Shown here piece by piece: positions 1 to 54,166 of a DNA stretch of 54,166 bases. Under the pieces are notes generated by a model. The model saw only the letters and a list, made by a program, of their open reading frames with translations. It had not been told where the DNA came from and searched no databases. Position 1 is the first letter of the stretch. Every line of letters begins with the position of its first letter. This DNA comes from a virus: positions 1 to 54,166 of the IMG/VR virus record IMGVR_UViG_3300033149_001397. The stretch is one strand, 5' to 3'. The translations under genes and the position numbers were made by a program.

Positions 1-114
1 GGGGGTCGAACCCGGCATCCGGCCCTGACCGCTTATGCGGGATACCGTCAGCGTACCATTCTGAGGGGTCCAATTAAGTGTATGTGGTGTTGCCTTTCCT
101 TTCTCGGGGCCACC
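1..114. repeat. Terminal direct repeat, left copy (circular contig overlap)
   Basis: The first 114 bases are repeated exactly as the last 114 bases (54053-54166). An exact repeat of this size at both ends of an assembled contig usually means the molecule is circular or circularly permuted and the assembler closed on itself. The unique genome is then 54,052 bp and the break point is arbitrary. A genuine short terminal repeat of a linear virion DNA cannot be excluded. Confidence 0.95.
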
Positions 115-22799: not shown

Positions 22800-23219
22800 T
22801 TATTTCACCACGTTGTGCATTAGTATTTTTACGATTCGTGGGACATCCTCATCCTGAATCATGATGAACGGTCTTGCCACCATGTTGCGTGTTCCTGTCT
22901 GGTGATATTTGCCGTATGCAACGCTCGGGGCAATCGAAACAGCGTTTCCTGTGACACGCCATCCTATTGAGTTTTTCAGCGTACCGGTATCCATCAACGG
23001 CCTTGATGAGCCGCCCCTGCGCCGTGCAATTGTTGACGCCTTCAACGGCGCCCATCGCGTTGGTTGGCCACCAGCTTTAAAGTTTTTGTCAATACTGCCA
23101 ATCATGTAGCGGCCAATATCATCAAGGTTGCGCGGCATTTGTTTTTTTATCCTGTCGCGCAGCATGTCAATGGACTTGATTGCGGATTTATCGTCAACGC
23201 TGATTGATATCTCAAGCAT
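22800..23219 (-). CDS. Phage virion morphogenesis protein (Mu gpG-like)
   Basis: A 139-residue protein of the phage virion morphogenesis family. Typical elements are the helical N-terminus, WAPLKASTIARRR, LMDTGTLKNSIGWRV, VAYGKYHQTGTRN and a C-terminal RPFIMI. The family includes Mu gpG and phage P2 gpS-like tail-completion proteins. It is packed directly between the DUF1320-like and terminator-like genes. Confidence 0.88.
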   Translation of the reverse strand: MLEISISVDDKSAIKSIDMLRDRIKKQMPRNLDDIGRYMIGSIDKNFKAGGQPTRWAPLKASTIARRRGGSSRPLMDTGTLKNSIGWRVTGNAVSIAPSVAYGKYHQTGTRNMVARPFIMIQDEDVPRIVKILMHNVVK

Positions 23220-23222
23220 TTA

Positions 23223-23678
23223 TTACCAGTCCTCCATGGTACCCTCGTCACCGATTGTTACGCCGTCGGTTTTGCGCGTTATGGTAAACTCCCTGTCCTC
23301 GTCTTTCCTGTTTGACAGCATCAGCGGTTCTGTTGTGGTGTCCGCATCAAGCAACCCCGGGTTGTTTTCTATGATATCGTCTATGCGCTCCAGCGGCCCA
23401 TCACAAAAGCGCACAACCCAATCTGTTTTATTTGGTGCCTTCTGTATTGATAACCGCTTCAATACCTCGCAAACCGCAAGCTCATTTGCAATATCGTCTA
23501 TCTCTCCGGGTACTGTTGTAAGCGGAGTCGTGACAATAGATGATATCCGTCCGTCTATCGCGTTGGACGCCTTTGTCAAAAACCTGTTGATCATATCGGT
23601 CGTGATAAGCGACTCTGTGATCATGTCTCCATAATCCACAAGCATGTCCTGCACGCCCTGTATATTTCCGTATGCCAT
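23223..23678 (-). CDS. DUF1320-like head-tail connector (Mu gp36-like)
   Basis: A 151-residue protein. Its helical opening (GDMITESLITTDMINRFLTK), the DGRISSIV motif and IANELAVCEVLKRL match DUF1320, the Mu gp36 family of head-tail connectors. It is the first structural gene after the sugar cassette. The sugar cassette therefore separates it from the capsid genes it would normally follow. Confidence 0.82.
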   Translation of the reverse strand: MAYGNIQGVQDMLVDYGDMITESLITTDMINRFLTKASNAIDGRISSIVTTPLTTVPGEIDDIANELAVCEVLKRLSIQKAPNKTDWVVRFCDGPLERIDDIIENNPGLLDADTTTEPLMLSNRKDEDREFTITRKTDGVTIGDEGTMEDW

Positions 23679-23737: not shown

Positions 23738-24628
23738 TCACTGCGTGTTTGCCCTGAACCACTCAATCAGGTTTGAAATCCCGCGATCTATCTGGACAAT
23801 CGGCTTCCACCCCGTGTGTTTTTTTATCAGTGTTGTATCTGCTACAGAATGCAGCAGTTCGCCACTGCGCGGCTTTTCGTATACGCGCGGAAGCTTCGCT
23901 CCGTCCACGCAATCAAATATATCTGCGAGCATATTGATTGATATGTTGTTGCCGGTGCCGACCCCAACTGATTCGCCCACAAGACCGTCTGCATATAGCA
24001 CGTCGTGTATTGCGTGTGACAGGTCTGATACGCTGATAAAGTCCCGTGTCTGCTCACCGTCGCCGTATATCTTATAAGCTTTGAGTGTTCCGTTTGCAAT
24101 GCCGCGCGCCCATAGCGCGATTATGCTGCCCTTGTGCATGGACACAGGGCCATACACGTTTGCAAACCGCAGCGGTGTTATCCGCATTCCATAGGATTCG
24201 CAGTATGCCTGGCAGTATGATTCTGTTGCGGCTTTTGATGCGCCGTATGGCGATGATGCCTTGTCGGCACCCGCCGCGCACGACGAGGCAACAACCACGC
24301 GCATGTCCTTATTCTCTCTGCGCACAGCCTCAAGAACGGATATTGTCCCAAGCACATTTTCGTATGCGTTTATCCACGGGTTTTCCTTTGAGTCAACAAC
24401 CGATGTTTGCGCGGCCAGGTGTACTACCGCATCACATCCGTGTATTGCCGTGTCTATTATATCGTTGGTATGTATGTTCCCGGCGACAACAGACGCACCA
24501 AACGGCACGCCTCTCAACCCGCATACGTCGCCGGTGTCCAGCACCACAACCTCATGGCCAATTTCAAGCAGCACCCTGCAGAGATTGCTGCCTATAAACC
24601 CGGCGCCACCCGTTATCAATATTCTCAT
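23738..24628 (-). CDS. NAD-dependent sugar-nucleotide epimerase/dehydratase
   Basis: A 296-residue extended short-chain dehydrogenase. GGAGFIGSN (residues 7-15) is the NAD-binding glycine motif, HLAAQTSV the next conserved segment, and YGASK the catalytic Y-x3-K pair. RFANVYGP and DGEQTRDFISVSDL are typical of UDP-glucose/GlcNAc 4-epimerases and related enzymes. It starts in a four-base overlap with the SqdB-like gene, so the two are coupled. It probably supplies a second nucleotide sugar or isomerises the sulfosugar precursor. The exact substrate cannot be read from the sequence. Confidence 0.88.
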   Translation of the reverse strand: MRILITGGAGFIGSNLCRVLLEIGHEVVVLDTGDVCGLRGVPFGASVVAGNIHTNDIIDTAIHGCDAVVHLAAQTSVVDSKENPWINAYENVLGTISVLEAVRRENKDMRVVVASSCAAGADKASSPYGASKAATESYCQAYCESYGMRITPLRFANVYGPVSMHKGSIIALWARGIANGTLKAYKIYGDGEQTRDFISVSDLSHAIHDVLYADGLVGESVGVGTGNNISINMLADIFDCVDGAKLPRVYEKPRSGELLHSVADTTLIKKHTGWKPIVQIDRGISNLIEWFRANTQ

Positions 24629-25846: not shown

Positions 25847-26677
25847 TTACAGCGCTGTTTTGTTCTGCTCAAGCTCAGCAAATATTTCATTCATTTCGTC
25901 GTGGCGAGATATGGAATCATATTCGCTTTTTGGCAACACGTCTTTTGCCTTTTCCATGTATGATATCTTTTTGTAGTATGCGTTTCTTTCAAGCTTGTAT
26001 ATGTCCTCGTCGAATACGTCGGCAATCGCCTTGTCATATACTGATTCATTGGTGTTCAGGTTGGTCATGTTGTTGCCGCCCATCTGGTGATGCTCGTAAT
26101 TCCAGTATTCGACAATGCCCGGCTCATATTCTTCACCGATAATGCCGCACAGGTATTTCAACCACGCCTCATTCTCCGTTGCGAAATCTTTGTATGACAG
26201 GACTATTGTGTTATCAATGTTTGCCGTTGCGAGTAGCGCCTGTTCGTAGAATGTTCCCCACACGCCTATTTTGTCTTCGCGCTTTCGTATGCGCGCAGAT
26301 GCGTAGAACTCCAGCGGCGACTTGTACATAATGAGCGGTATTATATTTGCTCTCCCACCCCACGCCGGCAAAACGTGCTGCCTGAAATACCAAGGTGATT
26401 TGCTCGAATCTACCATGTTGGTAACGTCAAACAACTCTGCGTATCTGTAATACACATTATTGATATCTGTCCCATGCAGAAATTCATCTGTGATGTATTT
26501 GCAGTTTGTCCGACATGATGAGCATCTGCTGTATTCGATATATCCGCGGTCCGGGCTCGTCCACTGTGAAACCTCTCCGATGGAAACACAGTTCTTGAGC
26601 GACCCAAGCTGATATCCGAGCAATGTGCTGCCACAGTAAGACGCCCCAAGAATGAAAACCACGTTCGGCTGCTTCAT
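25847..26677 (-). CDS. PAPS-dependent sulfotransferase
   Basis: A 276-residue protein. GASYCGSTLLG (residues 11-21) is a P-loop-like 5'-phosphosulfate-binding loop at the N-terminus, as in carbohydrate sulfotransferases. IMYKSPLEFYASARIR near residues 117-132 fits the 3'-phosphate-binding strand-helix with its conserved serine. DSSKSPWYFRQ also matches the family. A CxxC-x2-C cysteine group (RCSSCRTNCK) lies around residue 52-61. It would transfer sulfate from PAPS to a sugar or protein hydroxyl. It overlaps the upstream methyltransferase gene by four bases. Confidence 0.85.
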   Translation of the reverse strand: MKQPNVVFILGASYCGSTLLGYQLGSLKNCVSIGEVSQWTSPDRGYIEYSRCSSCRTNCKYITDEFLHGTDINNVYYRYAELFDVTNMVDSSKSPWYFRQHVLPAWGGRANIIPLIMYKSPLEFYASARIRKREDKIGVWGTFYEQALLATANIDNTIVLSYKDFATENEAWLKYLCGIIGEEYEPGIVEYWNYEHHQMGGNNMTNLNTNESVYDKAIADVFDEDIYKLERNAYYKKISYMEKAKDVLPKSEYDSISRHDEMNEIFAELEQNKTAL

Positions 26678-27492
26678 GCGATTCTTCTCCCAACAACAGT
26701 AACCATAATCCCGTTTTCAAACCAGTCGAGAATTTCAAACCCAACCGACTCAAGCATTGCCCGCAGGACACGCCCAAAGAAGTGTGTAGCATGGCCAATC
26801 GGCGCGGCCATTGTGCGCTCAACATCAAGCTCCTCAAGAAATGTTTTGAGCAGAATCGACCCGCCATCCCTTATCATTGACGACATCTTTTTCAAGTCTT
26901 GATGCGGGGAATAGCTGTGCTCGATATAATCCAGCATGACCCCGCAGTCATATTGCCGCATATCATGGTAGTCCTGAAATCGGCCATACCACATGTTCTC
27001 AAGCCCAAGTTTTTGTTTGGCGTTTCGCACGTGCCACTTGTTCAGTTCACACCCGCACAGCTCTTCAACGCCCATATCGCGGACAGCATCAAGGAAAAAC
27101 CCACACGCGCCCCCAACCTCAAATATGCTTTTTGGCAACCCGTTTGCATCAATCACGCGCTGAAATGTCCTCTGGTAAAAGTCCTTGATTTGCCGGCGCC
27201 GTAAGTAGCGATCTTCAACAGGTGTAAACCCTGTATTTAGAAAGTACCTGTCAGCGTGCGCCCGGGCGTTTTCGCTGTTGCCGCTATTCTTTGACAGCAC
27301 ATCAAATCTAAGCCTCGGAGAATAGAACCTGAGGCCGCACCCTGAGCATTCTACAAGATTGTGAAGCGTGTTGTTTACGTTCTCGTAAATCAACACATGC
27401 TCTCTTTTATCTGAGCCACAAAACGAGCAATCCGGTGTTTCCCAGTCTTCCCGCTTTTGCCACCGCTTTTTGAAGTCAACCGTCTTCGACAT
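26674..27492 (-). CDS. SAM-dependent methyltransferase with N-terminal zinc knuckles
   Basis: A 272-residue class I methyltransferase. I start it at the ATG at 27492, right after the GT2 gene. The longer frame extends 51 residues into that gene without a plausible start. Residues 20-60 hold two CxxC knuckles (CSFCG and CSGCG), a layout common in sugar methyltransferases. The SAM motif is IFEVGGACGFFLDAV, and MLDYIEHSYSPHQDL matches the usual post-II motif. It probably methylates a sugar in the cassette product. Confidence 0.85.
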   Translation of the reverse strand: MSKTVDFKKRWQKREDWETPDCSFCGSDKREHVLIYENVNNTLHNLVECSGCGLRFYSPRLRFDVLSKNSGNSENARAHADRYFLNTGFTPVEDRYLRRRQIKDFYQRTFQRVIDANGLPKSIFEVGGACGFFLDAVRDMGVEELCGCELNKWHVRNAKQKLGLENMWYGRFQDYHDMRQYDCGVMLDYIEHSYSPHQDLKKMSSMIRDGGSILLKTFLEELDVERTMAAPIGHATHFFGRVLRAMLESVGFEILDWFENGIMVTVVGRRIA

Positions 27493-27496
27493 TCCA

Positions 27497-28378
27497 CTAA
27501 TCCTCTGTGTCTTGTTTCTGCTGGGCAATATCAACCACCGCACCCATAACATGCTGGTTAGAATATGGAAGGCCAGATATGGAAAATACATCGGACACAA
27601 ACCCGCATACGTCCTTGTTGTATAAAGAATCCCGCACCGCACCAAGGTTGCTAATCAGCCCTTTCAGCCCGTGTAGTTTGCTGTATTTCCGCGAATCTTT
27701 CCCGGCAACAATGACGCTGTTGTCTGTGATTGTCCCTATCAGCAGCCCGCATAGCGCCATTGCATCAACATCGTCCCACCGCCGCTTCAGCCGGCTATAA
27801 AATATCCCGTAGTACGGAATTATCCATGGTATCAATCCATGATTCCTGTGTTTCTCAACCAACCCCTTATATCGTTCGTATGACATTTCCGGCGTGAACG
27901 ATGTTCCATGCAGCCCGAGGCATTGGTATCTTCTATTGTCGAATATACATTTGAATGTGTATCCGTCCTTCTTCATTCTGGTTATCTGGTCAACCTCGCA
28001 CGCGACCCTGTTGATATACGGATAGTTTTTCATGATTTCATGCTTGTAAATTTTAACCCCGAATATCCACCTATCAAGATGAACGTCCCACAGCGGATAT
28101 ACTATGATTGCTTCTTTCGGCCCGCTTTCAATCACGCCGTTATACATGCGGCGAACCGCGTCCGGGCGCAACAGCATATCCTCGTCAACCTGTATATAGT
28201 ATGGTGTCTCGCACCGATTAATCATTTCCTGAAATGCCGCCGCTGACGGCGAGTAGTTTTCTACCGTATCAAGCTGAAACTTACAGTCTTGATTCTTTAG
28301 TCTCGATACGCAATCTGCCGCAGTAATGCCGCCAATAGTAATCACGTATACTGTTAATTCGCTGCTAAGGTCTTTCAT
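27497..28378 (-). CDS. GT2-like glycosyltransferase (free-standing paralogue)
   Basis: A 293-residue protein. The N-terminal strand (LTVYVITIGG), AAFQEMINRC and YYIQVDEDMLL with its D-x-D metal motif are typical of GT-A fold family 2 glycosyltransferases. Along its whole length it is clearly related to the N-terminal half of the next gene upstream (shared PLWDVHLDRW, VKIY, LHGTS, ERYKGLVEKHR), so the pair arose by duplication. The substrate is unknown. Confidence 0.82.
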   Translation of the reverse strand: MKDLSSELTVYVITIGGITAADCVSRLKNQDCKFQLDTVENYSPSAAAFQEMINRCETPYYIQVDEDMLLRPDAVRRMYNGVIESGPKEAIIVYPLWDVHLDRWIFGVKIYKHEIMKNYPYINRVACEVDQITRMKKDGYTFKCIFDNRRYQCLGLHGTSFTPEMSYERYKGLVEKHRNHGLIPWIIPYYGIFYSRLKRRWDDVDAMALCGLLIGTITDNSVIVAGKDSRKYSKLHGLKGLISNLGAVRDSLYNKDVCGFVSDVFSISGLPYSNQHVMGAVVDIAQQKQDTED

Positions 28379-30150
28379 CCTATCACCCTGCCAAAACAGT
28401 GTTTACAGCTCTCCTGTGGCTGTTTGCTTAACACCGAATATCTCAACTCGTTAAACGCCTCTATGTTGTATGGGCTCGCTGGCGTGTCAATTCTGTGAAT
28501 GTCTTGTGGCGGGGCAATACGCCGGCACAGCCCTGTCAGAACCCAGTCGTATTTTGCAGCACACCGCGCGGCAACAAACGGGCTTTTGCAGTTGTGGACC
28601 CTCATGGTTGTATCAATCGGCGTCGGCCACACTGTCACAAGCTCAGCGCCCGGCAGGTTTTTATACCCCTCAATTTCTTCAATCTGTTCTGTGTCTGTGT
28701 CAAAAATCGCCACATCCCGGAAGGCCCTGCTATCCAATGGTGACATTTCGAAATGTGGCAGCGTGTTCATAAATGTTATGAACGCCACCCCGAGCCCGTT
28801 GGCGAACCCAATGAACGCCGGAATCTCTGTATAATTCTGCTTGTTCACCACGCATGATACGCCTGTTTTTATCTGGCCTTTAACCGCCTCGATTCCTGCC
28901 AGCACAACCTCAAACGTCTTTGTGCGCGTGACCATGTTGTGGCCATCTGCATCATAGGCATTCAGGCTCACGGATATGTTATCAAGCCCTGATTCAACAA
29001 GAGAATCCGCATGCTTGTGCAGAAGTATTCCATTTGTGATAAGAGATACAAACTTGCCCTTGCTTTTTAGCAACCTGATAATATCAAACACATTCTCATT
29101 AAGCAGCGGTTCGCCCATTCCGGCAAGGCATGCCCCGGTGATTGATGGGAACTTTCGAAGGAACCGCTCAACGTGCTGGGGCTCCAGGTCTTTAAACCCA
29201 GTCACCTCTTCCGTGTGCTCTTCTCTGCGGCAGAACCAGCAGCGCGAATTACACTTGTCGGTCATAAACAAAACAGCCTCACGCGGAGCCCCGAGTTTTG
29301 ACATGACTCGATTGATATTATCTTCTGTGTATGGCAGCCCGGACAGGTCCATGATATCAGTTATAAACTGTCGCGGCCATTTGTTGTGGAATGAAAAATC
29401 AAGCACGTCAAGGTTGTCAAGTATTCCGCGCACCCCGGGAAGGCTGCCATATTTTGTATAGTCTTTTTCCCCTGTGTTTTCGTTAACGTCTGTTATGTTG
29501 CCTATCACCATTCCGGCGAATGATGCGGCGGCAATGGGATTGAAATTCTGCTCCATGCGATTAAAAAATATCTGATAATACTCGTCAACCCATCTGACAA
29601 GACCATGGCGACGGTGTTTTTCCACGAGGTCTTTGTATCGCTCGTATGCTGTTATCGTTGTATATGATGTGCCGTGCAGGCCCACGCACGATTCGCGGCC
29701 GCCATAGGGAATGTTCTTGAATGTGTATCCGTCCGCTTCCAGCCGCTTGAACTGTCCGACCTCGCATGAGATTGTGTTCTCGTATGGGTAGTTTCGGACA
29801 ATGTTGTGGTCATATATTTTGACGCCCTGCAACCACCTGTCAAGATGGACATCCCACAGCGGGAACACCGCAAACGCCTCTTTGTCGTCGAGGCTAATCG
29901 CCGCATCATACATCGTCTGTACGGCTGTTTCTTCAAGTATCATATCCTCATCAAGCTGAATGAAGTATCTTGTTTTACATCGCGTCAACATCTCCTGGAA
30001 TGCCGCAGACATTGGGCGCTTGTTGACGATAAAGGCAACGTTGAACACGCCATCGCACTCCTGCTTTTTCAGCGCCGACACGCACGCATCAAATGTCTCG
30101 CCACCAATACTGATTACAAACACTGTCAAGTCAAGCCGATTCAATTCCAT
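28375..30150 (-). CDS. GT2 glycosyltransferase fused to a radical-SAM enzyme
   Basis: A 591-residue fusion. Residues 1-285 are a GT2-like domain paralogous to the neighbouring gene (QLDEDMIL, residues 65-72, carries D-x-D). Residues about 290-510 are a radical-SAM core with C300-x3-C304-x2-C307 (KCNSRCWFC) and GMGEP, the SAM-binding motif. Residues about 520-591 contain further cysteines (HNCKSPFVAARCAA, GLCRR, SCKHC), fitting an auxiliary iron-sulfur SPASM-like region. Such enzymes make hard bonds on sugars or peptides. The fusion suggests modification and sugar transfer are linked. Confidence 0.85.
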   Translation of the reverse strand: MELNRLDLTVFVISIGGETFDACVSALKKQECDGVFNVAFIVNKRPMSAAFQEMLTRCKTRYFIQLDEDMILEETAVQTMYDAAISLDDKEAFAVFPLWDVHLDRWLQGVKIYDHNIVRNYPYENTISCEVGQFKRLEADGYTFKNIPYGGRESCVGLHGTSYTTITAYERYKDLVEKHRRHGLVRWVDEYYQIFFNRMEQNFNPIAAASFAGMVIGNITDVNENTGEKDYTKYGSLPGVRGILDNLDVLDFSFHNKWPRQFITDIMDLSGLPYTEDNINRVMSKLGAPREAVLFMTDKCNSRCWFCRREEHTEEVTGFKDLEPQHVERFLRKFPSITGACLAGMGEPLLNENVFDIIRLLKSKGKFVSLITNGILLHKHADSLVESGLDNISVSLNAYDADGHNMVTRTKTFEVVLAGIEAVKGQIKTGVSCVVNKQNYTEIPAFIGFANGLGVAFITFMNTLPHFEMSPLDSRAFRDVAIFDTDTEQIEEIEGYKNLPGAELVTVWPTPIDTTMRVHNCKSPFVAARCAAKYDWVLTGLCRRIAPPQDIHRIDTPASPYNIEAFNELRYSVLSKQPQESCKHCFGRVIG

Positions 30151-31834
30151 TTTCTATTGCCCTCTCTGTATAATGGATTACTCTGTCCCACGATAGTATT
30201 TTGTTAACCACATGGTTGTTCAACATGAATATCCTGTCATAATTTTGCAGCGAAAAATAGCGAATCGCCGCTATAAATTGCCCGACATCCGGCCTAACAA
30301 TAACTCCGTTTATATCGCCCACAAAAAGATTCATTGCATAGCCTACATCCGTTGATACAACCGGCGTTCCGCACGCAATGGCCTCGCATGTGGTTGACGC
30401 TATGGCCTCGGAATGGCTCGCATTAAGATACACATCCACGCTGTTGTAGAATTTGCACATTCCGTCATACGGTATTTCGTCGATGAGGTGTCCGGCCATG
30501 CGGATTTCCTCTACCACGTCCGGGTTAACATCCTTTGCGGCGAACCTGAAATTATATTCATCTTTCAATGCCCTGAACACAGGCAGGATGATTTCATAAA
30601 ACCGTTTGTGGTCGCGCGGGTTGCCGTGGCTTGCATTGCCGGCCCACCCTATTGTCAGCCGCTCATTCCGCTTTGTTCGCACGTTGAAAAACATGTTTGT
30701 ATCAACGCCCTGCGGAGTAAAATATACTTTGTGGCCGATGTGCGCTGACCGTGCAATTTTGTACAGCCTGTCTGAAATCGCGTGTATGTGTTTGCAACAT
30801 TTAAGTTTCTCATTGAACACACCAATGAACCTGTCATCATCATACCCGTGGTGGGACTCAACAGATACTGCTACGCGCTCTGGTGGCACCTGCGCCATGA
30901 GCCGCCGTAATATCTCTGGATACAGCCCAATAATCGACCGGCAGACAATGAAGTCATACCGAGAAAAATTAATATCGTCAATTTTTATGTAGCCTCTAAT
31001 TGCCTTGTTCCTGTACTCGCGGATAAAGCACGTCTTGTCAACCCTGTATTTGTGTGATAGCTTTTCTGCAATTACATCAACGAGCCGCGCAACAGCCCAG
31101 TCCGGCGTATCTGCGATAAACAGAATGCGCTTCTTTTCCGGCTCCGGAATCTTGTTTGCGAACCCTGCAATTCCGCTAAGTCTGTCAGGCCACTTGAATT
31201 GTAATATTGAGTGGCTTTTTATGTACTGGTCGTCATGGTCAAATGTTTTTTGGGTGTGCATTGTCCTGTGTTCGGCGTGCTGAATCCGGTGATCCTTCAG
31301 CCACCCTATTGAATATCCGGCCTCTTTAGCCCGCCAGTAAAAATCAACGTCCGAGCAGTATGCTGGTGAAAACACCTGGTCTAACCCGCCGAGATATTCC
31401 CACACGTCGCGCCTTACCAGCAGACCGCCACCACCCAAATATACGCGGTCGCTGTCTTTCCATTCGTGTAGATCTTTCCCTATTCCGTTTTCGTTGACCT
31501 CGTTGAGCACACACCCAACAATGTCATGGTTGTTTTCTGTTGCCGCCCGGAACAGCCGCTCAATGGCACCCGGGCTCACAAACTGGTCGTCGTCAAGAAA
31601 TAGAAACCAGCCGTATTTTGCGAACTTGGCAATATGATTGCGGCCACCCACACACCCAAGGTTCTTTTCGTGCTCAATAAAGCGTACCCACGGGAATCGC
31701 TCTTTGCGTATTTTCGACTCCCCGCCATTGTTCATCACAATGACCTCGCCGAACTTCTCACAGCTAATTGCTTTTAAGCAACTCACAATTGTTCCGCTGT
31801 TATGCGTTAAAATCAAAACAGATATGTCAAGCAT
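30131..31834 (-). CDS. Bifunctional GT2-GT4 glycosyltransferase
   Basis: A 567-residue protein. Residues 1-220 are a GT2 domain (SVLILTHNSG, WFLFLDDDQF with the D-x-D metal site, CSDVDFYWRAKEAGY). Residues about 230-560 resemble a GT-B fold family 4 domain: GWAGNASHG, then SEAIASTTCEAIACGTPVVS, which has the conserved E-x7-E spacing. Two glycosyltransferase domains in one chain usually add two sugars in succession. It overlaps both neighbours, so it belongs to the coupled cassette. Confidence 0.87.
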   Translation of the reverse strand: MLDISVLILTHNSGTIVSCLKAISCEKFGEVIVMNNGGESKIRKERFPWVRFIEHEKNLGCVGGRNHIAKFAKYGWFLFLDDDQFVSPGAIERLFRAATENNHDIVGCVLNEVNENGIGKDLHEWKDSDRVYLGGGGLLVRRDVWEYLGGLDQVFSPAYCSDVDFYWRAKEAGYSIGWLKDHRIQHAEHRTMHTQKTFDHDDQYIKSHSILQFKWPDRLSGIAGFANKIPEPEKKRILFIADTPDWAVARLVDVIAEKLSHKYRVDKTCFIREYRNKAIRGYIKIDDINFSRYDFIVCRSIIGLYPEILRRLMAQVPPERVAVSVESHHGYDDDRFIGVFNEKLKCCKHIHAISDRLYKIARSAHIGHKVYFTPQGVDTNMFFNVRTKRNERLTIGWAGNASHGNPRDHKRFYEIILPVFRALKDEYNFRFAAKDVNPDVVEEIRMAGHLIDEIPYDGMCKFYNSVDVYLNASHSEAIASTTCEAIACGTPVVSTDVGYAMNLFVGDINGVIVRPDVGQFIAAIRYFSLQNYDRIFMLNNHVVNKILSWDRVIHYTERAIENGIESA

Positions 31835-32960
31835 TTTTTATCATCCTTGCCGCCTTTGTTGCTATCTCAGCGGGCTTTATTGAGGACATACAAACATTGT
31901 CTTTTGTGCGGTTGCAATATCTAATCCTTCCACGCAAGCGCTGCCAGTCCCAGCACGGAACACATGGGGCCGCGCCGATTTTGTGGATGTAATCAACGTG
32001 GTCACCGTAATGGTCAAACCGCCATTCAAACGGCATTGACGACAACAGCACCAGCGTGGGTATTCCAAGCGCGGCAGATACATGGGCCATGCCGGTGTCC
32101 GGAGATATCACAAGGTCAGACATCCAGCATACAGCCGCTGCATCCATTGCGGTTTCTGTTCGCGTGCCGAGGTCAAGCACCCCTGGAATATCGCCAAACA
32201 ATGCGGCATCAACGTCCAGCACAACAACGGTGTGGTCGGGTAGTGCCTTGCGCAGTTCAATAATTACATCGCGTGATTTCCACGGCTCATACGATCTATT
32301 CCACGCCACCGCCTGTAGCACGTATGTAATGATAGGCCCGGTTACGTTGCGCAGCAGGTCTGACGCCGCAGCATAGTTCTCTGCTGTTAATCTCGGCTCA
32401 ACCACGTTCTCATATTCAGGCAGGTCGATTCCAATCATTTTTGCAAACGATTCAACCCGCCTGCCACGGTTGCGCAGTATGCTATAAAATTCAAGGCACC
32501 GCATGAAATTTATAATCAGCTTGTATTCTGTCCCATCAAGATTTATGTCGTGTATGGAAACCGGCTCGTCAATGAAATCATGGCCGGAAACCATATCAAT
32601 AAATTTCGGCAGCGTGGCATAGGTGATAGTCGCGTGCGGATACCTGTGTTTTAGCTGCTTGACTGTTGGCAGAGAAAGAAGGATATCGCCGAGGCCCATG
32701 TCGCGCATTATCAGTATTTTGTCGCCCGGCAATATCTCATCATCAAAAACAGAAATAGACTCCAATGTTGTATTGGAGCCTATATAATACGTGTCGTCGT
32801 TAATAACCTTATACTCAGGATATAACCCCGTCATTATTTCGCGTGAGATATCGGATTTATCGTCAACCTGTCGCGGTATCCCGCGCACCATTGTTGTTCC
32901 TGTTTTGCCACCCGGCGGGAAACCCAACATTTCCCGGCCGAGATAAACGACCTGTTTCAC
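31827..32960 (-). CDS. GT9-like (heptosyltransferase-family) glycosyltransferase
   Basis: A 377-residue protein. IMRDMGLGDILLSLPTVKQL (residues about 83-102) is the N-terminal motif of family 9 transferases, and SPDTGMAHVSAALGIPTLVL (about 288-307) is the C-terminal nucleotide-sugar motif. The first 60 residues are an extra domain. It begins with GTG after AAGGAGGA and is the first gene of the cassette, 23 bp after the secreted-protein gene. Confidence 0.85.
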   Translation of the reverse strand: MKQVVYLGREMLGFPPGGKTGTTMVRGIPRQVDDKSDISREIMTGLYPEYKVINDDTYYIGSNTTLESISVFDDEILPGDKILIMRDMGLGDILLSLPTVKQLKHRYPHATITYATLPKFIDMVSGHDFIDEPVSIHDINLDGTEYKLIINFMRCLEFYSILRNRGRRVESFAKMIGIDLPEYENVVEPRLTAENYAAASDLLRNVTGPIITYVLQAVAWNRSYEPWKSRDVIIELRKALPDHTVVVLDVDAALFGDIPGVLDLGTRTETAMDAAAVCWMSDLVISPDTGMAHVSAALGIPTLVLLSSMPFEWRFDHYGDHVDYIHKIGAAPCVPCWDWQRLRGRIRYCNRTKDNVCMSSIKPAEIATKAARMIKNA

Positions 32961-32983: not shown

Positions 32984-34267
32984 TTATTGGTTCTCTACAT
33001 ATCCATTCAGTTTGACAATCACATCAACGTTCCCGCCGACCCCTGCACGTGACGAAAGCCTTACCCCGAGTATCGGGTTTGTATTAACCGGAATGTGCAG
33101 CACTCCGTTAATCGGGAAGTGGCAATTGCCAAGGGCATTACACTGCGCAGAGTAGATTTCCTCATCGGTCCCGGCATCCTGCCATAGTATCATCTGGACA
33201 GGCACAGTGTCGCTTGCACCTGCGCCCAAATCATCATCAACAATAATTGAGATATCCGTAACGTGCTTATCGTAGGTTGTGTTTATCCATGTGCTGATTG
33301 AGCTCGTGGCCCACGTCCAATTGTCGGCAACCGTTATTGTTGCCTGCGGAATCTGCTGCCCGCTGTCAGCCTGGTCGCGCATACCGAATGTGCCGATGCC
33401 GCTTGAATATGTGGTTACGCTTTTCGCGCCCTGGTTTGTAATGTGTGTATAGATAGTGTTTCCGTTGGTCTCTACAACCTGCAATCCACGGGCCGCTGAA
33501 CCACCGGCGAAATCGCGCACAGGAACAACAGCACTGCCGTCTGTTATGGTCGTCAACAGGCTCTTGTATGTGCCTGTGTTTATGTCGGCAAAAATATTTC
33601 CGTCCTCGTCTGTCAACACAAATATTTGTGGATCATAGGTGCCGGCCGCATCAAGGATGTCTGCCGTGGTTGTGCCATCCGTAATACCAACCGGGCCATA
33701 GTTAACCGTGTCGTCAACGATGTTCCACGGTGTCCCATCAATGGCATTTCTTATCGTGACCGCGCTTGATGCCGTGCCGACTCCGAGCGTAACGTTAAGA
33801 GCACCACTCGAATCAACCGTCGCCTCAACACCGCTTGTCCTGTCTGTAATAACAGCCGTGTCTGTGGCTGATACCCCGGCGCATGTTACCGTCCCGTCAA
33901 CCGTCAGGCTGCCACCGTCGTCGTCAACACTGATTGCCTGCGAGCCATCGGCTATAAACAGGTGACCTGTTGCGTCTACATTGGCAAGGTCGTACCCATC
34001 GCCTATCTCAACGCGCAGTGCGGGAGAATTGCCCGGGGCCACGTCAACACACGTTGAATAGTCCTCGTTGCAAATTCTGAATGTGCCGCTGGCAATCTCT
34101 GTGATGCTGCCCACGGAAACAACAGTGTTTACATCAATTGTCCCGTCGGCGTTTACCTCAAGACGGTCATCATCCGTATCGCGAATATGAACATCCCTAA
34201 TCGGCCCGGCCAACGCCAACATGGACGCGACAAGGATCATGATCGTTGTGTAAAAAATAGTTTTCAT
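32984..34267 (-). CDS. Secreted phage protein with signal peptide
   Basis: A 427-residue protein. The N-terminus (basic K2, hydrophobic core residues 4-19, A-L-A-G cleavage-like end) is a clear signal peptide. The mature part is beta-rich, acidic and threonine/serine-rich with short repeats, and has cysteine pairs (CNEDYSTC, CNALGNC) that could form disulfides outside the cytoplasm. It lies between the capsid gene and the sugar cassette, behind a terminator. An exported protein in a head operon is unusual. It may be surface-displayed and glycosylated by the cassette. A head decoration protein with a hydrophobic start is an alternative. Confidence 0.75.
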   Translation of the reverse strand: MKTIFYTTIMILVASMLALAGPIRDVHIRDTDDDRLEVNADGTIDVNTVVSVGSITEIASGTFRICNEDYSTCVDVAPGNSPALRVEIGDGYDLANVDATGHLFIADGSQAISVDDDGGSLTVDGTVTCAGVSATDTAVITDRTSGVEATVDSSGALNVTLGVGTASSAVTIRNAIDGTPWNIVDDTVNYGPVGITDGTTTADILDAAGTYDPQIFVLTDEDGNIFADINTGTYKSLLTTITDGSAVVPVRDFAGGSAARGLQVVETNGNTIYTHITNQGAKSVTTYSSGIGTFGMRDQADSGQQIPQATITVADNWTWATSSISTWINTTYDKHVTDISIIVDDDLGAGASDTVPVQMILWQDAGTDEEIYSAQCNALGNCHFPINGVLHIPVNTNPILGVRLSSRAGVGGNVDVIVKLNGYVENQ

Positions 34268-34331: not shown

Positions 34332-35270
34332 TTACGAAATGACGTTACGGATCAGGTATGCGGCGTATTCGCACACAACCTTGACGTCGTTTTTCTCGTC
34401 TGCGCGCACGTACTTGCCGCGCGGGTCAATGGTGTCCCACTTGTCCACCCGGCGCATCTGAGTGAAGAAGGTCTGACCAAATGTCATCATCTTTTTCCGC
34501 GGCGTTCCAGGAGATTTGTAGAACAATAGCACGTGCTTGCCCCACACGTCAGAGCCGCTGTAGGTAGCTCCGTGGTTGGCAGAATCGTAAATGCCGCCCG
34601 GAATGAGCACCTTCATGTTGAACAGTGTGGCGGGAAGATCGCCGTTGATCAACAGGTTGTCATTGGTGAACTTGCGGAGCGCGCGGATGTTGCTGTCGCG
34701 CTTCATCACCTTTGCAACAGCCGCCGGAATCACAATGTGGTTGGGCTCGAACCCGATGGCCGCGCGAATGGTTTCTTTCGCGGCATCAAGCTCTTCTTCG
34801 ATATCGCCGGTGTAGCTGGCGTTATCCCACTGTGCTGTTCCCGTGCGTGTGGCAGTGTGTCCGCTGGTTGCGAACGTGGCTGCGGCCGTAGCAAGATCGG
34901 CAGCCCGCTTCTCATGTGCAAGCATCAGATTCTCTGTGATGTATCCAGTCGCGTCAACCTCCAGGTCAATGGGTTTGTCCGCGGCGTCGATATCATCCTG
35001 GGAAATTTTGTGCTTCAACGCATGTCGGTCACACGTGTAGGTCGGAGTGCTTTCGATTTCGAACGGGTCAACCTCGTTAGCCTCCGCGTTGCTGGCCTGC
35101 ACGGTGTCATAAATGCGCTTGTCCTGCTTGCCGTAGACAGGATATTTGTCGCTCTCTTTGTCTACCTTGACAAACGGGAAAACCTCAGAGGCGACGAATA
35201 ACCCCTGCCCGTATTTAATGCTGTAGTTCGTCAGAAATCTGTCAACTTTGATGTCTCCATACTTGGACAT
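34332..35270 (-). CDS. Major capsid protein
   Basis: A 312-residue protein with an HK97-fold major capsid look: SIKYGQGLFVASEVFPFVKV near the start, DRHALKHKISQDDIDAADKP, FEPNHIVIPAAVAKVMKRD and a strong P-domain pattern. It follows the DUF2190-like gene and the protease/scaffold, and AGGAGGTGAGCG precedes the ATG. The terminator just after it fits the highest expression in the operon. Confidence 0.88.
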   Translation of the reverse strand: MSKYGDIKVDRFLTNYSIKYGQGLFVASEVFPFVKVDKESDKYPVYGKQDKRIYDTVQASNAEANEVDPFEIESTPTYTCDRHALKHKISQDDIDAADKPIDLEVDATGYITENLMLAHEKRAADLATAAATFATSGHTATRTGTAQWDNASYTGDIEEELDAAKETIRAAIGFEPNHIVIPAAVAKVMKRDSNIRALRKFTNDNLLINGDLPATLFNMKVLIPGGIYDSANHGATYSGSDVWGKHVLLFYKSPGTPRKKMMTFGQTFFTQMRRVDKWDTIDPRGKYVRADEKNDVKVVCEYAAYLIRNVIS

Positions 35271-37143: not shown

Positions 37144-37608
37144 TTATTCTGAATTGTTTTCTGTACAATTCATACCACGTATAAACTGGTTGAATGTCTT
37201 TATTAGTGCCTCGTTTGGATTTGCAATTGATCTTTTTTCTTTAATCATCGCAATTGCCGAATTGATATCTTTGCACACACCGCCAAACACAAGGTATGAT
37301 GCCACAACACAAACAGACCTGCTCCTGCCCTCATGGCAATATACAAGAATTGGTTTGTCAGAGTGGGCCAGAATAGAGCGCAGGGAATCTATTGCCACGC
37401 CGACTTTCCACACCGGATTTCCGCCGCCATCAACAAACCCAACATGTATGCTTGCCTCAACATCAAGATCTATTGCGCAGTTCATTGTCAAGAAATCCTG
37501 CTCATTTGCATTAACAATAAAAAACACGCCGTTTTTCTTTCTGACCGGCGCCTTGTCTTTTCCATCACGAGATGAGCCAATCCAAACCCTATCTGTAATT
37601 CTGTCCAT
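37144..37608 (-). CDS. Dual-specificity protein phosphatase
   Basis: A 154-residue protein tyrosine/dual-specificity phosphatase. YCHEGRSRSV carries the C-x5-R loop with C91 and R97. The usual H before C is replaced by Y90. D60 in VGFVDGG is a candidate general acid. It opens with DRITDRVWIGS, the typical start of small DSPs. The gene sits between portal and protease, three bases after the portal stop, so it is expressed with head proteins. It may dephosphorylate a virion protein, a host protein or a nucleic-acid cap. The target is unknown. Confidence 0.87.
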   Translation of the reverse strand: MDRITDRVWIGSSRDGKDKAPVRKKNGVFFIVNANEQDFLTMNCAIDLDVEASIHVGFVDGGGNPVWKVGVAIDSLRSILAHSDKPILVYCHEGRSRSVCVVASYLVFGGVCKDINSAIAMIKEKRSIANPNEALIKTFNQFIRGMNCTENNSE

Positions 37609-42962: not shown

Positions 42963-43289
42963 ATGAAAGCTCAAAAAACAATGTTCACTGTTTGGAACGA
43001 GCCGGACCTGAAAATCCAAATCGGTAATAACCTCGGACTGGTTGAACTCCGAATTTTTACAATCAGCAATGACCCGGAAAAGCCGGGCCAGCTCACAAAA
43101 AAACCCACCACATACAACATAAATTACGAATCAGCCCTGAAACACCTATACTGCGTGCTGAAGGATGTACCAACCGGCGTGGTAAAAGGCTTCGACGCAC
43201 TCATCGAGCAGGAAAAACTGTGGCAAAAAAAGGTGTCGCAAATAGCACAACGGATTGAGGATGCTGTTTCGGCCGCCAAAAGGGACTGA
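42963..43289 (+). CDS. Hypothetical protein, 108 aa, upstream of the methyltransferase
   Basis: The first of the two plus-strand genes. It is a 108-residue mixed protein (MKAQKTMFTVWNEPDLKIQI) with a helical C-terminus (EKLWQKKVSQIAQRIEDAV). Its stop codon lies three bases before the methyltransferase starts, inside their shared ribosome-binding region. Function unknown. A modulator or specificity partner of the methyltransferase is possible. Confidence 0.7.
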   Translation: MKAQKTMFTVWNEPDLKIQIGNNLGLVELRIFTISNDPEKPGQLTKKPTTYNINYESALKHLYCVLKDVPTGVVKGFDALIEQEKLWQKKVSQIAQRIEDAVSAAKRD

Positions 43290-43291
43290 CA

Positions 43292-44326
43292 ATGTGGCTG
43301 CACATACCGAAAGAGCATTTAACGGAATCAGCCTGTGCGCGGGATACGACGGGATCGGGCTCGGAATTGCCATGGTTGAACCCGGCTATAGAACAGTCTG
43401 TTACGTGGAGAGAGAAGCTTTCGCATCAGCAAACCTGGCGGCAAAGATGGAAAAAAAATGCCTGGCTCCGGCGCCTATCTGGTCTGACGTTAAAACCTTC
43501 GACGGCAAGCCGTGGCGCGGAATCGTTCATATCGTCACTGCGGGAATCCCATGCCAGCCATGGAGCACCGCGGGCAAGCGAACCGGAACATCTGATGAAC
43601 GCTGGATTTGGGACGATATCTACAGAATCATTCAGGAAATCAGACCCGCATTCTGTTTCTTTGAAGAAGTCCGGGGATTTGTTTCCGGCGGTGGACTATC
43701 ACACATTCTCTGCGATTTGTCAGCCGTCGGGTATGATTGTGCGTGGGGCTTATTCAGAGCATCCGACGTGGACGCCCCGCACAAAAGGGAAAGATTGTTT
43801 GTGTTTTGCAGTCTGGCCAACACCGGCGAGCAGAGACTACAGGGACGGGAACAGCGAAAAGCATTGCCTAAAAACCGGCTCAGGCAGAAAACACATGGGC
43901 CAGTTGCCGAACTTCGTTCTTTATGGCCAGCCAGACCCGGACGACGGCAATACGAATGGGAACCCCCGAGGACGGTTGGGGAGAACGCCACGCGCCGGCG
44001 ATGCGGATCACGGCGGCCAGAATGCGAGGGACAGCTCCGGGGCTTTGCACCTATCAGCCCAGGCTGCGAATTGGCCGACACCAAGATGTTGCAACGGAAA
44101 GAGGAGTTCTGGAGCGCCGAGATCGGAATTCTACAAGAAAATGCCCGGGAAACAGGGGAAACTCAATCCACGCTGGGTAGAAACACTCATGGGATTACCA
44201 ATCGGGTGGACGAGCTGCGATTATGCGGTAATGGCGTCATACCTCTCGTGGCAGCAGTCGCATGGCAGGTTCTTAAAAACCGCCTTGAAAAACATGACCA
44301 CTAATCAGGTCCACACGGGCGGCTAA
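43292..44326 (+). CDS. Overlapping +1-frame product of the methyltransferase gene
   Basis: A second open frame of 344 residues covers the whole methyltransferase gene in the +1 frame, from ATG at 43292. The N-terminal half looks low-complexity and S/R/T-rich. The C-terminal half contains VWPTPASRDYRDGNSEKH, NWPTPRCCNGK and LNPRWVETLMGLPIGW. These are segments I recognise from the C-terminal parts of many phage C5 methyltransferases. It may be translated itself from the same ribosome site, or be reached by frameshifting. Without further evidence it could also be a relic. Confidence 0.5.
   Translation: MWLHIPKEHLTESACARDTTGSGSELPWLNPAIEQSVTWREKLSHQQTWRQRWKKNAWLRRLSGLTLKPSTASRGAESFISSLRESHASHGAPRASEPEHLMNAGFGTISTESFRKSDPHSVSLKKSGDLFPAVDYHTFSAICQPSGMIVRGAYSEHPTWTPRTKGKDCLCFAVWPTPASRDYRDGNSEKHCLKTGSGRKHMGQLPNFVLYGQPDPDDGNTNGNPRGRLGRTPRAGDADHGGQNARDSSGALHLSAQAANWPTPRCCNGKRSSGAPRSEFYKKMPGKQGKLNPRWVETLMGLPIGWTSCDYAVMASYLSWQQSHGRFLKTALKNMTTNQVHTGG
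43294..44304 (+). CDS. C5-cytosine DNA methyltransferase
   Basis: A 336-residue enzyme if started at GTG 43294 (longer starts at 43261 and 43255 overlap the upstream gene). GISLCAGYDGIGLG is motif I, TAGIPCQPWSTAGKR motif IV with the catalytic PCQ cysteine, FFEEVRGF motif VI, and DVDAPHKRERLF motif VIII. RLCGNGVIPLVAAVAW near the end is motif X. It would methylate cytosine in DNA, protecting phage DNA from restriction. It has no cognate nuclease. The ribosome site AAGGGA (43280-43285) lies eight bases before GTG and six before the overlapping frame's ATG. Confidence 0.9.
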   Translation: MAAHTERAFNGISLCAGYDGIGLGIAMVEPGYRTVCYVEREAFASANLAAKMEKKCLAPAPIWSDVKTFDGKPWRGIVHIVTAGIPCQPWSTAGKRTGTSDERWIWDDIYRIIQEIRPAFCFFEEVRGFVSGGGLSHILCDLSAVGYDCAWGLFRASDVDAPHKRERLFVFCSLANTGEQRLQGREQRKALPKNRLRQKTHGPVAELRSLWPARPGRRQYEWEPPRTVGENATRRRCGSRRPECEGQLRGFAPISPGCELADTKMLQRKEEFWSAEIGILQENARETGETQSTLGRNTHGITNRVDELRLCGNGVIPLVAAVAWQVLKNRLEKHDH

Positions 44327-54052: not shown

Positions 54053-54166
54053 GGGGGTCGAACCCGGCATCCGGCCCTGACCGCTTATGCGGGATACCGT
54101 CAGCGTACCATTCTGAGGGGTCCAATTAAGTGTATGTGGTGTTGCCTTTCCTTTCTCGGGGCCACC
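54053..54166. repeat. Terminal direct repeat, right copy (circular contig overlap)
   Basis: Exact copy of bases 1-114. The minus-strand HAD phosphatase gene begins just left of it, so the repeat is the upstream leader of that gene once the circle is closed. Read on the minus strand it contains a strong hairpin (GCCGGG, loop, CCCGGC) directly before the HAD start codon. Confidence 0.95.

What the first reader, a model, noticed from the sequence alone, without database searches (positions are those of the whole stretch)
28375..30150. Glycosyltransferase fused to a radical-SAM enzyme
One chain joins a GT2 domain with D-x-D to a radical-SAM core (C300-x3-C-x2-C, GMGEP) and a cysteine-rich end. 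Radical-SAM enzymes act on sugars or peptides by hydrogen abstraction. Coupled to a transferase and adjacent to a methyltransferase and SqdB, it could make an unusual bond, such as a C-linked or rearranged sugar. I know of no described enzyme with this architecture.
Basis: partly seen in the sequence, partly recalled or inferred. Interest (0 to 1): 0.75.

Follow-up and report, generated by a model that had tools for sequence, protein, structure and literature searches.

The report
Phage glycosyltransferase–radical-SAM fusion enzyme
A bacterial virus carries one protein that joins a sugar-transferring enzyme to a free-radical (radical-SAM) enzyme; the same fusion recurs in at least 14 other virus contigs, often inside the genes that build the virus head, which suggests that these viruses make an unusual, radical-modified sugar coat.

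Summary
Window 28375-30150(-) is one open frame of 591 aa: an N-terminal GT-A glycosyltransferase (D67-E-D69) joined, almost without linker, to a radical-SAM domain (C300-x3-C-x2-C) with a four-cysteine tail. It is not an assembly artefact: the same order recurs in 13 other IMG/VR contigs and in one phage contig inside a bacterial MAG. Two further viruses (L003, L004) carry the halves as overlapping neighbour genes. Among 48 glycosyltransferase-positive loci in 84,980 prokaryote genomes, only that phage contig has the fusion. The cysteine set (none of 21 relatives has the 7-Cys SPASM motif) predicts a Twitch-type single auxiliary cluster as in the aminocyclitol dehydrogenase BtrN; the best structural match is the sugar-active BlsE. 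The gene lies in an eight-gene glycan cassette directly after the head genes. The nearest cellular radical-SAM relatives lie in surface-polysaccharide loci. Best reading: a bifunctional enzyme that transfers a sugar and oxidises or epimerises it by hydrogen abstraction, most likely for a virion glycan. The chemistry and the target are inferred, not shown. Both halves are of known kinds; the architecture, its viral distribution and its head-module location look new.

The parts
28375..30150 (-). GT–radical-SAM fusion gene, 591 aa (P0001)
   Evidence: single ORF; 14 further fusions of the same order; AF2 model pLDDT 85
29302..30150 (-). GT domain, residues 1-283: GT-A core about 4-162 plus a helical extension
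   Evidence: VIA Z 17.1 to GT 6p61 and 16.0 to WrtF fucosyltransferase; 9/14 family members hit PF00535
29944..29952 (-). D67-E-D69 (D-x-D) motif; both Asp invariant in 14 of 14 relatives
28384..29289 (-). Radical-SAM (Twitch-like) domain, residues 288-589
   Evidence: PF04055 E 1.2e-23; VIA Z 23.3 to BlsE
29230..29253 (-). CX3CX2C (C300, C304, C307), SAM/[4Fe-4S] motif
28396..28590 (-). Four-cysteine auxiliary-cluster site C521, C542, C582, C585
   Evidence: invariant in 11 of 11 aligned relatives; no 7-Cys SPASM motif in 21 of 21
27497..28378 (-). Unfused paralogue of the GT domain, 293 aa (P0002)
   Evidence: 49% identity over residues 7-280
26674..27492 (-). SAM methyltransferase with N-terminal CxxC...CxxC stretch (P0003)
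   Evidence: PF13489 E 1e-12; family shared with L030, L036, L058
25847..26677 (-). Sulfotransferase-like protein (P0006)
   Evidence: PF13469 E 0.005, below cut-off; homologues next to the fusion in L132 (PF13469 E 6.7e-6) and L044
24625..25821 (-). UDP-sulfoquinovose-synthase-like SDR (P0007)
   Evidence: SQD1 1qrr E 3.8e-105; NF041015 501 bits against cut-off 575
23738..24628 (-). NAD-dependent epimerase/dehydratase (P0008)
   Evidence: PF01370 E 1.2e-47; also in L003, L060, L132
30131..31834 (-). GT2 + GT4 double glycosyltransferase, 567 aa (P0004)
   Evidence: PF00535 E 1.2e-14 and PF13692 E 3e-11
31827..32960 (-). GT9/heptosyltransferase-like gene (P0005)
   Evidence: TIGR02193 E 1.8e-9; PF01075 E 3e-4
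34332..35270 (-). Major head protein, upstream of the cassette
   Evidence: phrog_1005 E 9.5e-64
22800..23678 (-). Neck / head-tail adaptor genes, downstream of the cassette
   Evidence: phrog_26 and phrog_195

Best explanation
A virus-encoded bifunctional glycan enzyme. Shown: a GT-A glycosyltransferase domain with D-x-D is fused to a radical-SAM domain with CX3CX2C and four conserved C-terminal cysteines, inside a glycan cassette placed in the phage head operon. Inferred: the GT domain transfers one sugar from a nucleotide-sugar onto a growing glycan. The radical-SAM domain cleaves SAM at its first [4Fe-4S] cluster, and the 5'-deoxyadenosyl radical abstracts a hydrogen from that sugar unit (or its nucleotide-sugar form). 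The electron then passes to the fully ligated auxiliary cluster, giving an oxidised (keto) sugar or, after re-reduction, an epimer. Inferred with less certainty: the finished glycan, probably also sulfonated, sulfated and methylated by the neighbouring genes, is attached to head proteins of the virion.
For: Recurrence and order: 15 distinct contigs with GT then radical SAM, 14 of them with 16 or fewer residues between the domain hits. Split, overlapping genes in L003 and L004. The radical-SAM tree forces at least 3 changes between the fused and unfused states, as expected for a functional pair. 18 of 21 radical-SAM family members have this GT domain in the same protein or within about 1.3 kb. 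Fold: GT-A; radical SAM nearest BlsE, also MoaA, DesII and BtrN. Cluster: four Cys and no SPASM second half; BtrN, with four Cys ligands on its Twitch cluster, oxidises an aminocyclitol (PMC9012708, PMC6231123). Sugar context without the GT: L060 has a cytidylyltransferase, SDR and methyltransferase; the nearest cellular relatives lie beside an N-acetyl-sugar amidotransferase or near an ArnB-like sugar aminotransferase. Head context: a major head protein gene a short way upstream in the window, L033, L003 and L004, from three different PHROG families; between portal and other head genes in L132 and L034. Precedent: glycans on major capsid proteins of mycobacteriophages Che8 and Rita (PMC11256854).
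Against: No activity, cluster or product has been measured. In the window protein the first auxiliary motif is CX20C without the usual glycine, so the strict CX9-15GX4C motif fails here, although 15 of 21 relatives fit a slightly relaxed form. Structural nearness of radical-SAM domains does not predict reaction type (stated in PMC6231123). L030 sits beside a DNA polymerase gene, and several loci have no recognised head gene in reach. L009, L060 and L064 have the radical-SAM gene without this GT nearby. Interdomain contacts could not be judged (no PAE was given; pTM 0.68).
Confidence: 0.5

Rival explanations
1. The radical-SAM half modifies a protein (for example a head protein side chain) so that the GT half can glycosylate it, or makes a protein-sugar C-C or C-S bond.
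For: The radical-SAM fold is also close to peptide maturases (SuiB, SkfB, PqqE); genes sit in the head operon.
Against: No RRE/PqqD domain was found in the protein. Relatives without the GT sit in nucleotide-sugar or surface-polysaccharide loci, not beside short precursor peptides that I noticed.
Confidence: 0.17
2. The cassette alters the host cell surface (receptor masking, superinfection exclusion, serotype conversion) rather than the virion; the enzyme reaction is the same.
For: Closest cellular relatives are in surface-polysaccharide loci. Serotype conversion by phage glycosyltransferases is established knowledge. L030 lies outside a head module.
Against: No flippase, polymerase or membrane GtrA/B-like gene was identified in the window cassette. 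The cassette lies between head and neck genes, presumably with late expression.
Confidence: 0.25
3. The radical-SAM half is not catalytically coupled to the GT; the two are fused only for co-expression and act on different sugars of the same pathway.
For: Each half also exists alone (L009, L060, L064; the Nitrospira multi-GT proteins). The window itself carries a second, unfused GT copy.
Against: Almost no linker in 14 of 15 fusions and always the same order; neighbours even when split.
Confidence: 0.15
4. Assembly or sequencing artefact joining two genes.
For: None found.
Against: 14 further contigs with the same fusion; intact ORF; even G+C across both halves (48.0% and 50.4%).
Confidence: 0.01

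Closest known systems
BtrN (Twitch radical-SAM dehydrogenase of 2-deoxy-scyllo-inosamine, butirosin)
   Same: CX3CX2C core; one auxiliary site of four cysteines; VIA Z 16.0; acts on a sugar-like alcohol (PMC9012708)
   Different: Stand-alone and cellular; sequence kinship covers only the core (E 4e-11 with the family profile); substrate here unknown; window protein has CX20C
BlsE (cytosylglucuronate decarboxylase) and DesII (TDP-sugar deaminase)
   Same: Best PDB match by sequence and structure (7vob, E 8e-12, Z 23.3; DesII Z 19.5); both act on sugar nucleosides or nucleotides
   Different: No GT domain; only 57.6 bits on TIGR04466 against a cut-off of 400
Radical-SAM proteins of bacterial surface-polysaccharide loci (L155, L156 in Nitrospirota)
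   Same: Nearest cellular relatives (E 1e-39 and 3e-35) with the same CX2C tail, in amino-sugar loci
   Different: Unfused, no GT-A partner of this family, cellular
Nitrospira multi-GT proteins of about 2,200 aa
   Same: Same GT domain (E about 1e-50 to 1e-60)
   Different: Fused to other domains, no radical-SAM domain of this family
Capsid glycosylation of mycobacteriophages (Che8, Rita)
   Same: Phage-encoded glycosyltransferases and glycans on head proteins (PMC11256854, citing Freeman 2023)
   Different: No radical-SAM enzyme, SQD1 or sulfotransferase reported in the text I read

Membership tests
Radical SAM superfamily | PF04055 match above its cut-off and CX3CX2C motif | tested here: met
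   84.5 bits against 29.5; C300, C304, C307
SPASM-domain radical SAM | Seven-cysteine motif CX9-15GX4C-gap-CX2CX5CX3C-gap-C | tested here: not met
   0 of 21 family members; definition from PMC6231123. PF13186 does hit 7 of 11 members, weakly
Twitch-domain radical SAM | Four cysteines of the AuxI site (first half of SPASM), no AuxII cysteines | tested here: met
   All four invariant in 11 of 11 aligned members; 18-residue spacing in 10 of 11
Twitch-domain radical SAM | Strict CX9-15GX4C spacing in the window protein | tested here: not met
   Window has C521-x20-C542 without the Gly; 15 of 21 relatives fit a slightly relaxed pattern, CX9-18GX4C
Twitch-domain radical SAM | Binds one auxiliary [4Fe-4S] cluster | not testable with these tools
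   needs anaerobic reconstitution with Mossbauer or EPR
Glycosyltransferase family 2 / GT-A | GT-A fold | tested here: met
   model pLDDT 89, pTM 0.85; top 50 VIA rows Z 13.8-17.1, glycosyltransferases as far as their titles say, over residues 1-162
Glycosyltransferase family 2 / GT-A | D-x-D metal and nucleotide-sugar motif | tested here: met
   D67 and D69 invariant in 14 of 14; His159 in 13 of 14
Glycosyltransferase family 2 / GT-A | PF00535 above its cut-off in the window protein | tested here: not met
   no Pfam hit for this domain; 9 of 14 relatives hit at E up to 0.1
BlsE (TIGR04466) | curated score cut-off 400 bits | tested here: not met
   57.6 bits
RiPP radical-SAM maturase | RRE/PqqD-like domain in the protein | tested here: not met
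   no such Pfam match in the 591 aa; precursor peptides were not searched systematically
UDP-sulfoquinovose synthase (neighbour P0007) | NF041015 cut-off 575 bits | tested here: not met
   501 bits over the full length; SQD1 E 3.8e-105; probably the same function
Phage virion glycosylation system | Glycan covalently on head proteins | not testable with these tools
   needs virions; only gene position supports it

The most novel reading that the evidence does not exclude
A virus-specific family of GT–radical-SAM enzymes builds radical-modified (keto, epimerised or sulfonated) glycans directly on phage heads: the first radical chemistry in virion glycosylation, and an enzyme that couples glycosyl transfer to hydrogen abstraction in one chain.
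Probability: 0.3. Interest if true: 0.8.

Novelty: new variant of a known kind. Interest (0 to 1): 0.62.

Why it matters
It would add radical-SAM chemistry to the tools with which phages decorate themselves or their hosts, give a testable model for direct coupling of sugar transfer and radical tailoring, and provide a catalyst for making rare sugars. The recurrent fused and split forms offer natural variants for testing the coupling.

Tried and rejected
Artefact: rejected, 14 further fusions. SPASM type: rejected, no 7-Cys motif. MoaA, tungsten-cofactor, heme-maturase or viperin identity: NCBIfam scores far below cut-offs, core-only matches. Close relatives by a single-sequence viral scan: none; alignments were needed. 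INPHARED phages: only radical-SAM-half matches, and none for the unfused GT paralogue. Plasmids: no match covering 80% of the query; the listed ones cover the radical-SAM half. BFVD: no model matching both halves (best TMq 0.36 among those listed). Cellular fusion: none in 295 Nitrospirota genomes and, in 100 Bipolaricaulota genomes, only the phage contig; in the Nitrospirota search at most four candidates per genome were scored, so weak cases could be missed. Other, unrelated GT2–radical-SAM fusions elsewhere in bacteria were not surveyed. Paper searches found no description of the architecture; only open-access papers are held. The fused state is interleaved with the unfused on the radical-SAM tree (5 changes, no more clustered than shuffled), so a single origin could not be shown.

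Full report
What is there. Window 28375-30150(-) is a single ATG-started frame of 591 codons. The C-terminal half is radical SAM (PF04055, E 1.2e-23). The N-terminal half escapes Pfam, but 9 of 14 of its relatives hit Glycos_transf_2, and its model (pLDDT 89) has the GT-A fold, with Z 17.1 to a Leptospira glycosyltransferase and 16.0 to the fucosyltransferase WrtF. The following gene (27497-28378) is an unfused paralogue of that half, 49% identical.

Where it lies. The window is a virus record whose first and last 114 bases are identical, so it is probably a complete phage genome. The gene belongs to a tightly packed, same-strand run from 32960 down to 23738: GT9-like, GT2+GT4, the fusion, the GT paralogue, methyltransferase, sulfotransferase-like, SQD1-like and SDR. 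It sits between the head genes (large terminase, portal, protease, scaffold/decoration, major head protein phrog_1005) and the neck and tail genes.

Relatives. A single-sequence scan found none. Scans with alignments and domain mapping gave 14 distinct IMG/VR contigs, the window included, with GT then radical SAM in one protein: window, L008, L013, L016, L020, L022, L025, L033, L034, L044, L051, L052, L056, L057. In L003 and L004 the two halves are separate genes in the same order, overlapping by a few bases. A scan of 84,980 prokaryote genomes with the GT profile gave 48 loci; one, L132, has the fusion, and it is a phage contig with terminase, portal and head-morphogenesis genes. Nitrospira and other bacteria carry the GT domain only in other proteins, such as multi-GT proteins of about 2,200 aa. 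A search with the fusion profile in 295 Nitrospirota and 100 Bipolaricaulota genomes found no further fusion. The fusion therefore looks virus-specific within what I could search; unrelated GT2–radical-SAM fusions were not surveyed.

Trees. On the radical-SAM tree the fused and unfused states are interleaved (5 changes, at least 3 forced by well-supported branches). Repeated fusion or splitting of the same two parts is what a working pair would show, but the number of origins is not settled. On the GT tree fusions fall in several places among viral and cellular unfused forms.

Chemistry. All aligned relatives keep CX3C(X2-6)C, a further Cys just before the GxGEP motif, and four C-terminal cysteines. 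None of 21 has the 7-Cys SPASM motif. By the published definition (PMC6231123) this is a Twitch-type site with one auxiliary cluster. In BtrN such a cluster has four Cys ligands and probably takes the electron during the oxidation of an aminocyclitol, whereas MoaA leaves one site open (PMC9012708). The window protein departs in spacing (CX20C, no glycine). The nearest solved structure is BlsE, a sugar-nucleoside decarboxylase (Z 23.3), then MoaA, SuiB, SkfB, PqqE, DesII (Z 19.5) and BtrN (Z 16.0). The rank of radical-SAM folds does not decide the reaction.

Substrate. Three contexts point to sugars. First, the phage cassettes hold glycosyltransferases, methyltransferases, SDRs, SQD1 and sulfotransferase-like genes. 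Second, in L060 the radical-SAM gene stands without the GT but near a cytidylyltransferase, a 2-hydroxyacid dehydrogenase, SDRs and a methyltransferase. Third, the closest cellular relatives, L155 and L156, lie beside an N-acetyl-sugar amidotransferase with a HisF-like gene and near an ArnB-like sugar aminotransferase, with a flippase-like gene in L155 by eye.

Target. A major head protein gene lies a short way upstream of the cassette in the window and L033 (phrog_1005), L003 (phrog_138) and L004 (phrog_2522); in L132 and L034 the fusion lies between portal and other head genes. Capsid glycans are known in mycobacteriophages (PMC11256854). This favours a virion glycan. But L030 lies by a DNA polymerase gene and several loci could not be assigned, so host-surface modification remains a real rival.

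Verdict. Observation confirmed; interpretation partly supported. I propose a bifunctional enzyme in which the GT domain places a sugar and the Twitch radical-SAM domain oxidises or epimerises it. Domain identities, recurrence and context are shown; reaction, substrate and target are inferred.

Noticed in passing
window 1-114 and 54053-54166: Identical 114-base direct repeat at both ends, so the record is probably a complete phage genome of about 54 kb.
   Followed up: partly
window 37144-37608 (-): 154-aa protein with a YCHEGRSRS stretch like dual-specificity phosphatases, between the portal/head-morphogenesis gene and the protease gene; no PHROG match.
   Followed up: no
window 32984-34267 (-): 427-aa protein with a signal-peptide-like start between the major head protein and the cassette; no PHROG match.
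   Followed up: no
window 43255-44304 (+): DNA methyltransferase (phrog_363), encoded on the opposite strand to the head and cassette genes.
   Followed up: no
L017 5094-11526: Run of seven divergent radical-SAM ORFs close together in one viral contig.
   Followed up: no
L003 9601-10650, L004 10417-11472, L033 9619-10902 and 8 others: A family of roughly 330-430 aa with a ParB/SerK-like DGxHR stretch and a C-terminal methyltransferase-like part, near the GT–radical-SAM genes in 11 loci; the one tested member has no Pfam match.
   Followed up: partly
L109, L112-L129: Nitrospira genomes carry multi-glycosyltransferase proteins of about 2,200 aa with the same GT domain at about residues 410-640.
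   Followed up: partly
L051, L056, L057: Proteins of about 1,100 aa in which the GT–radical-SAM pair is followed by further sequence; L051 has a GT4 match at 719-812.
   Followed up: partly
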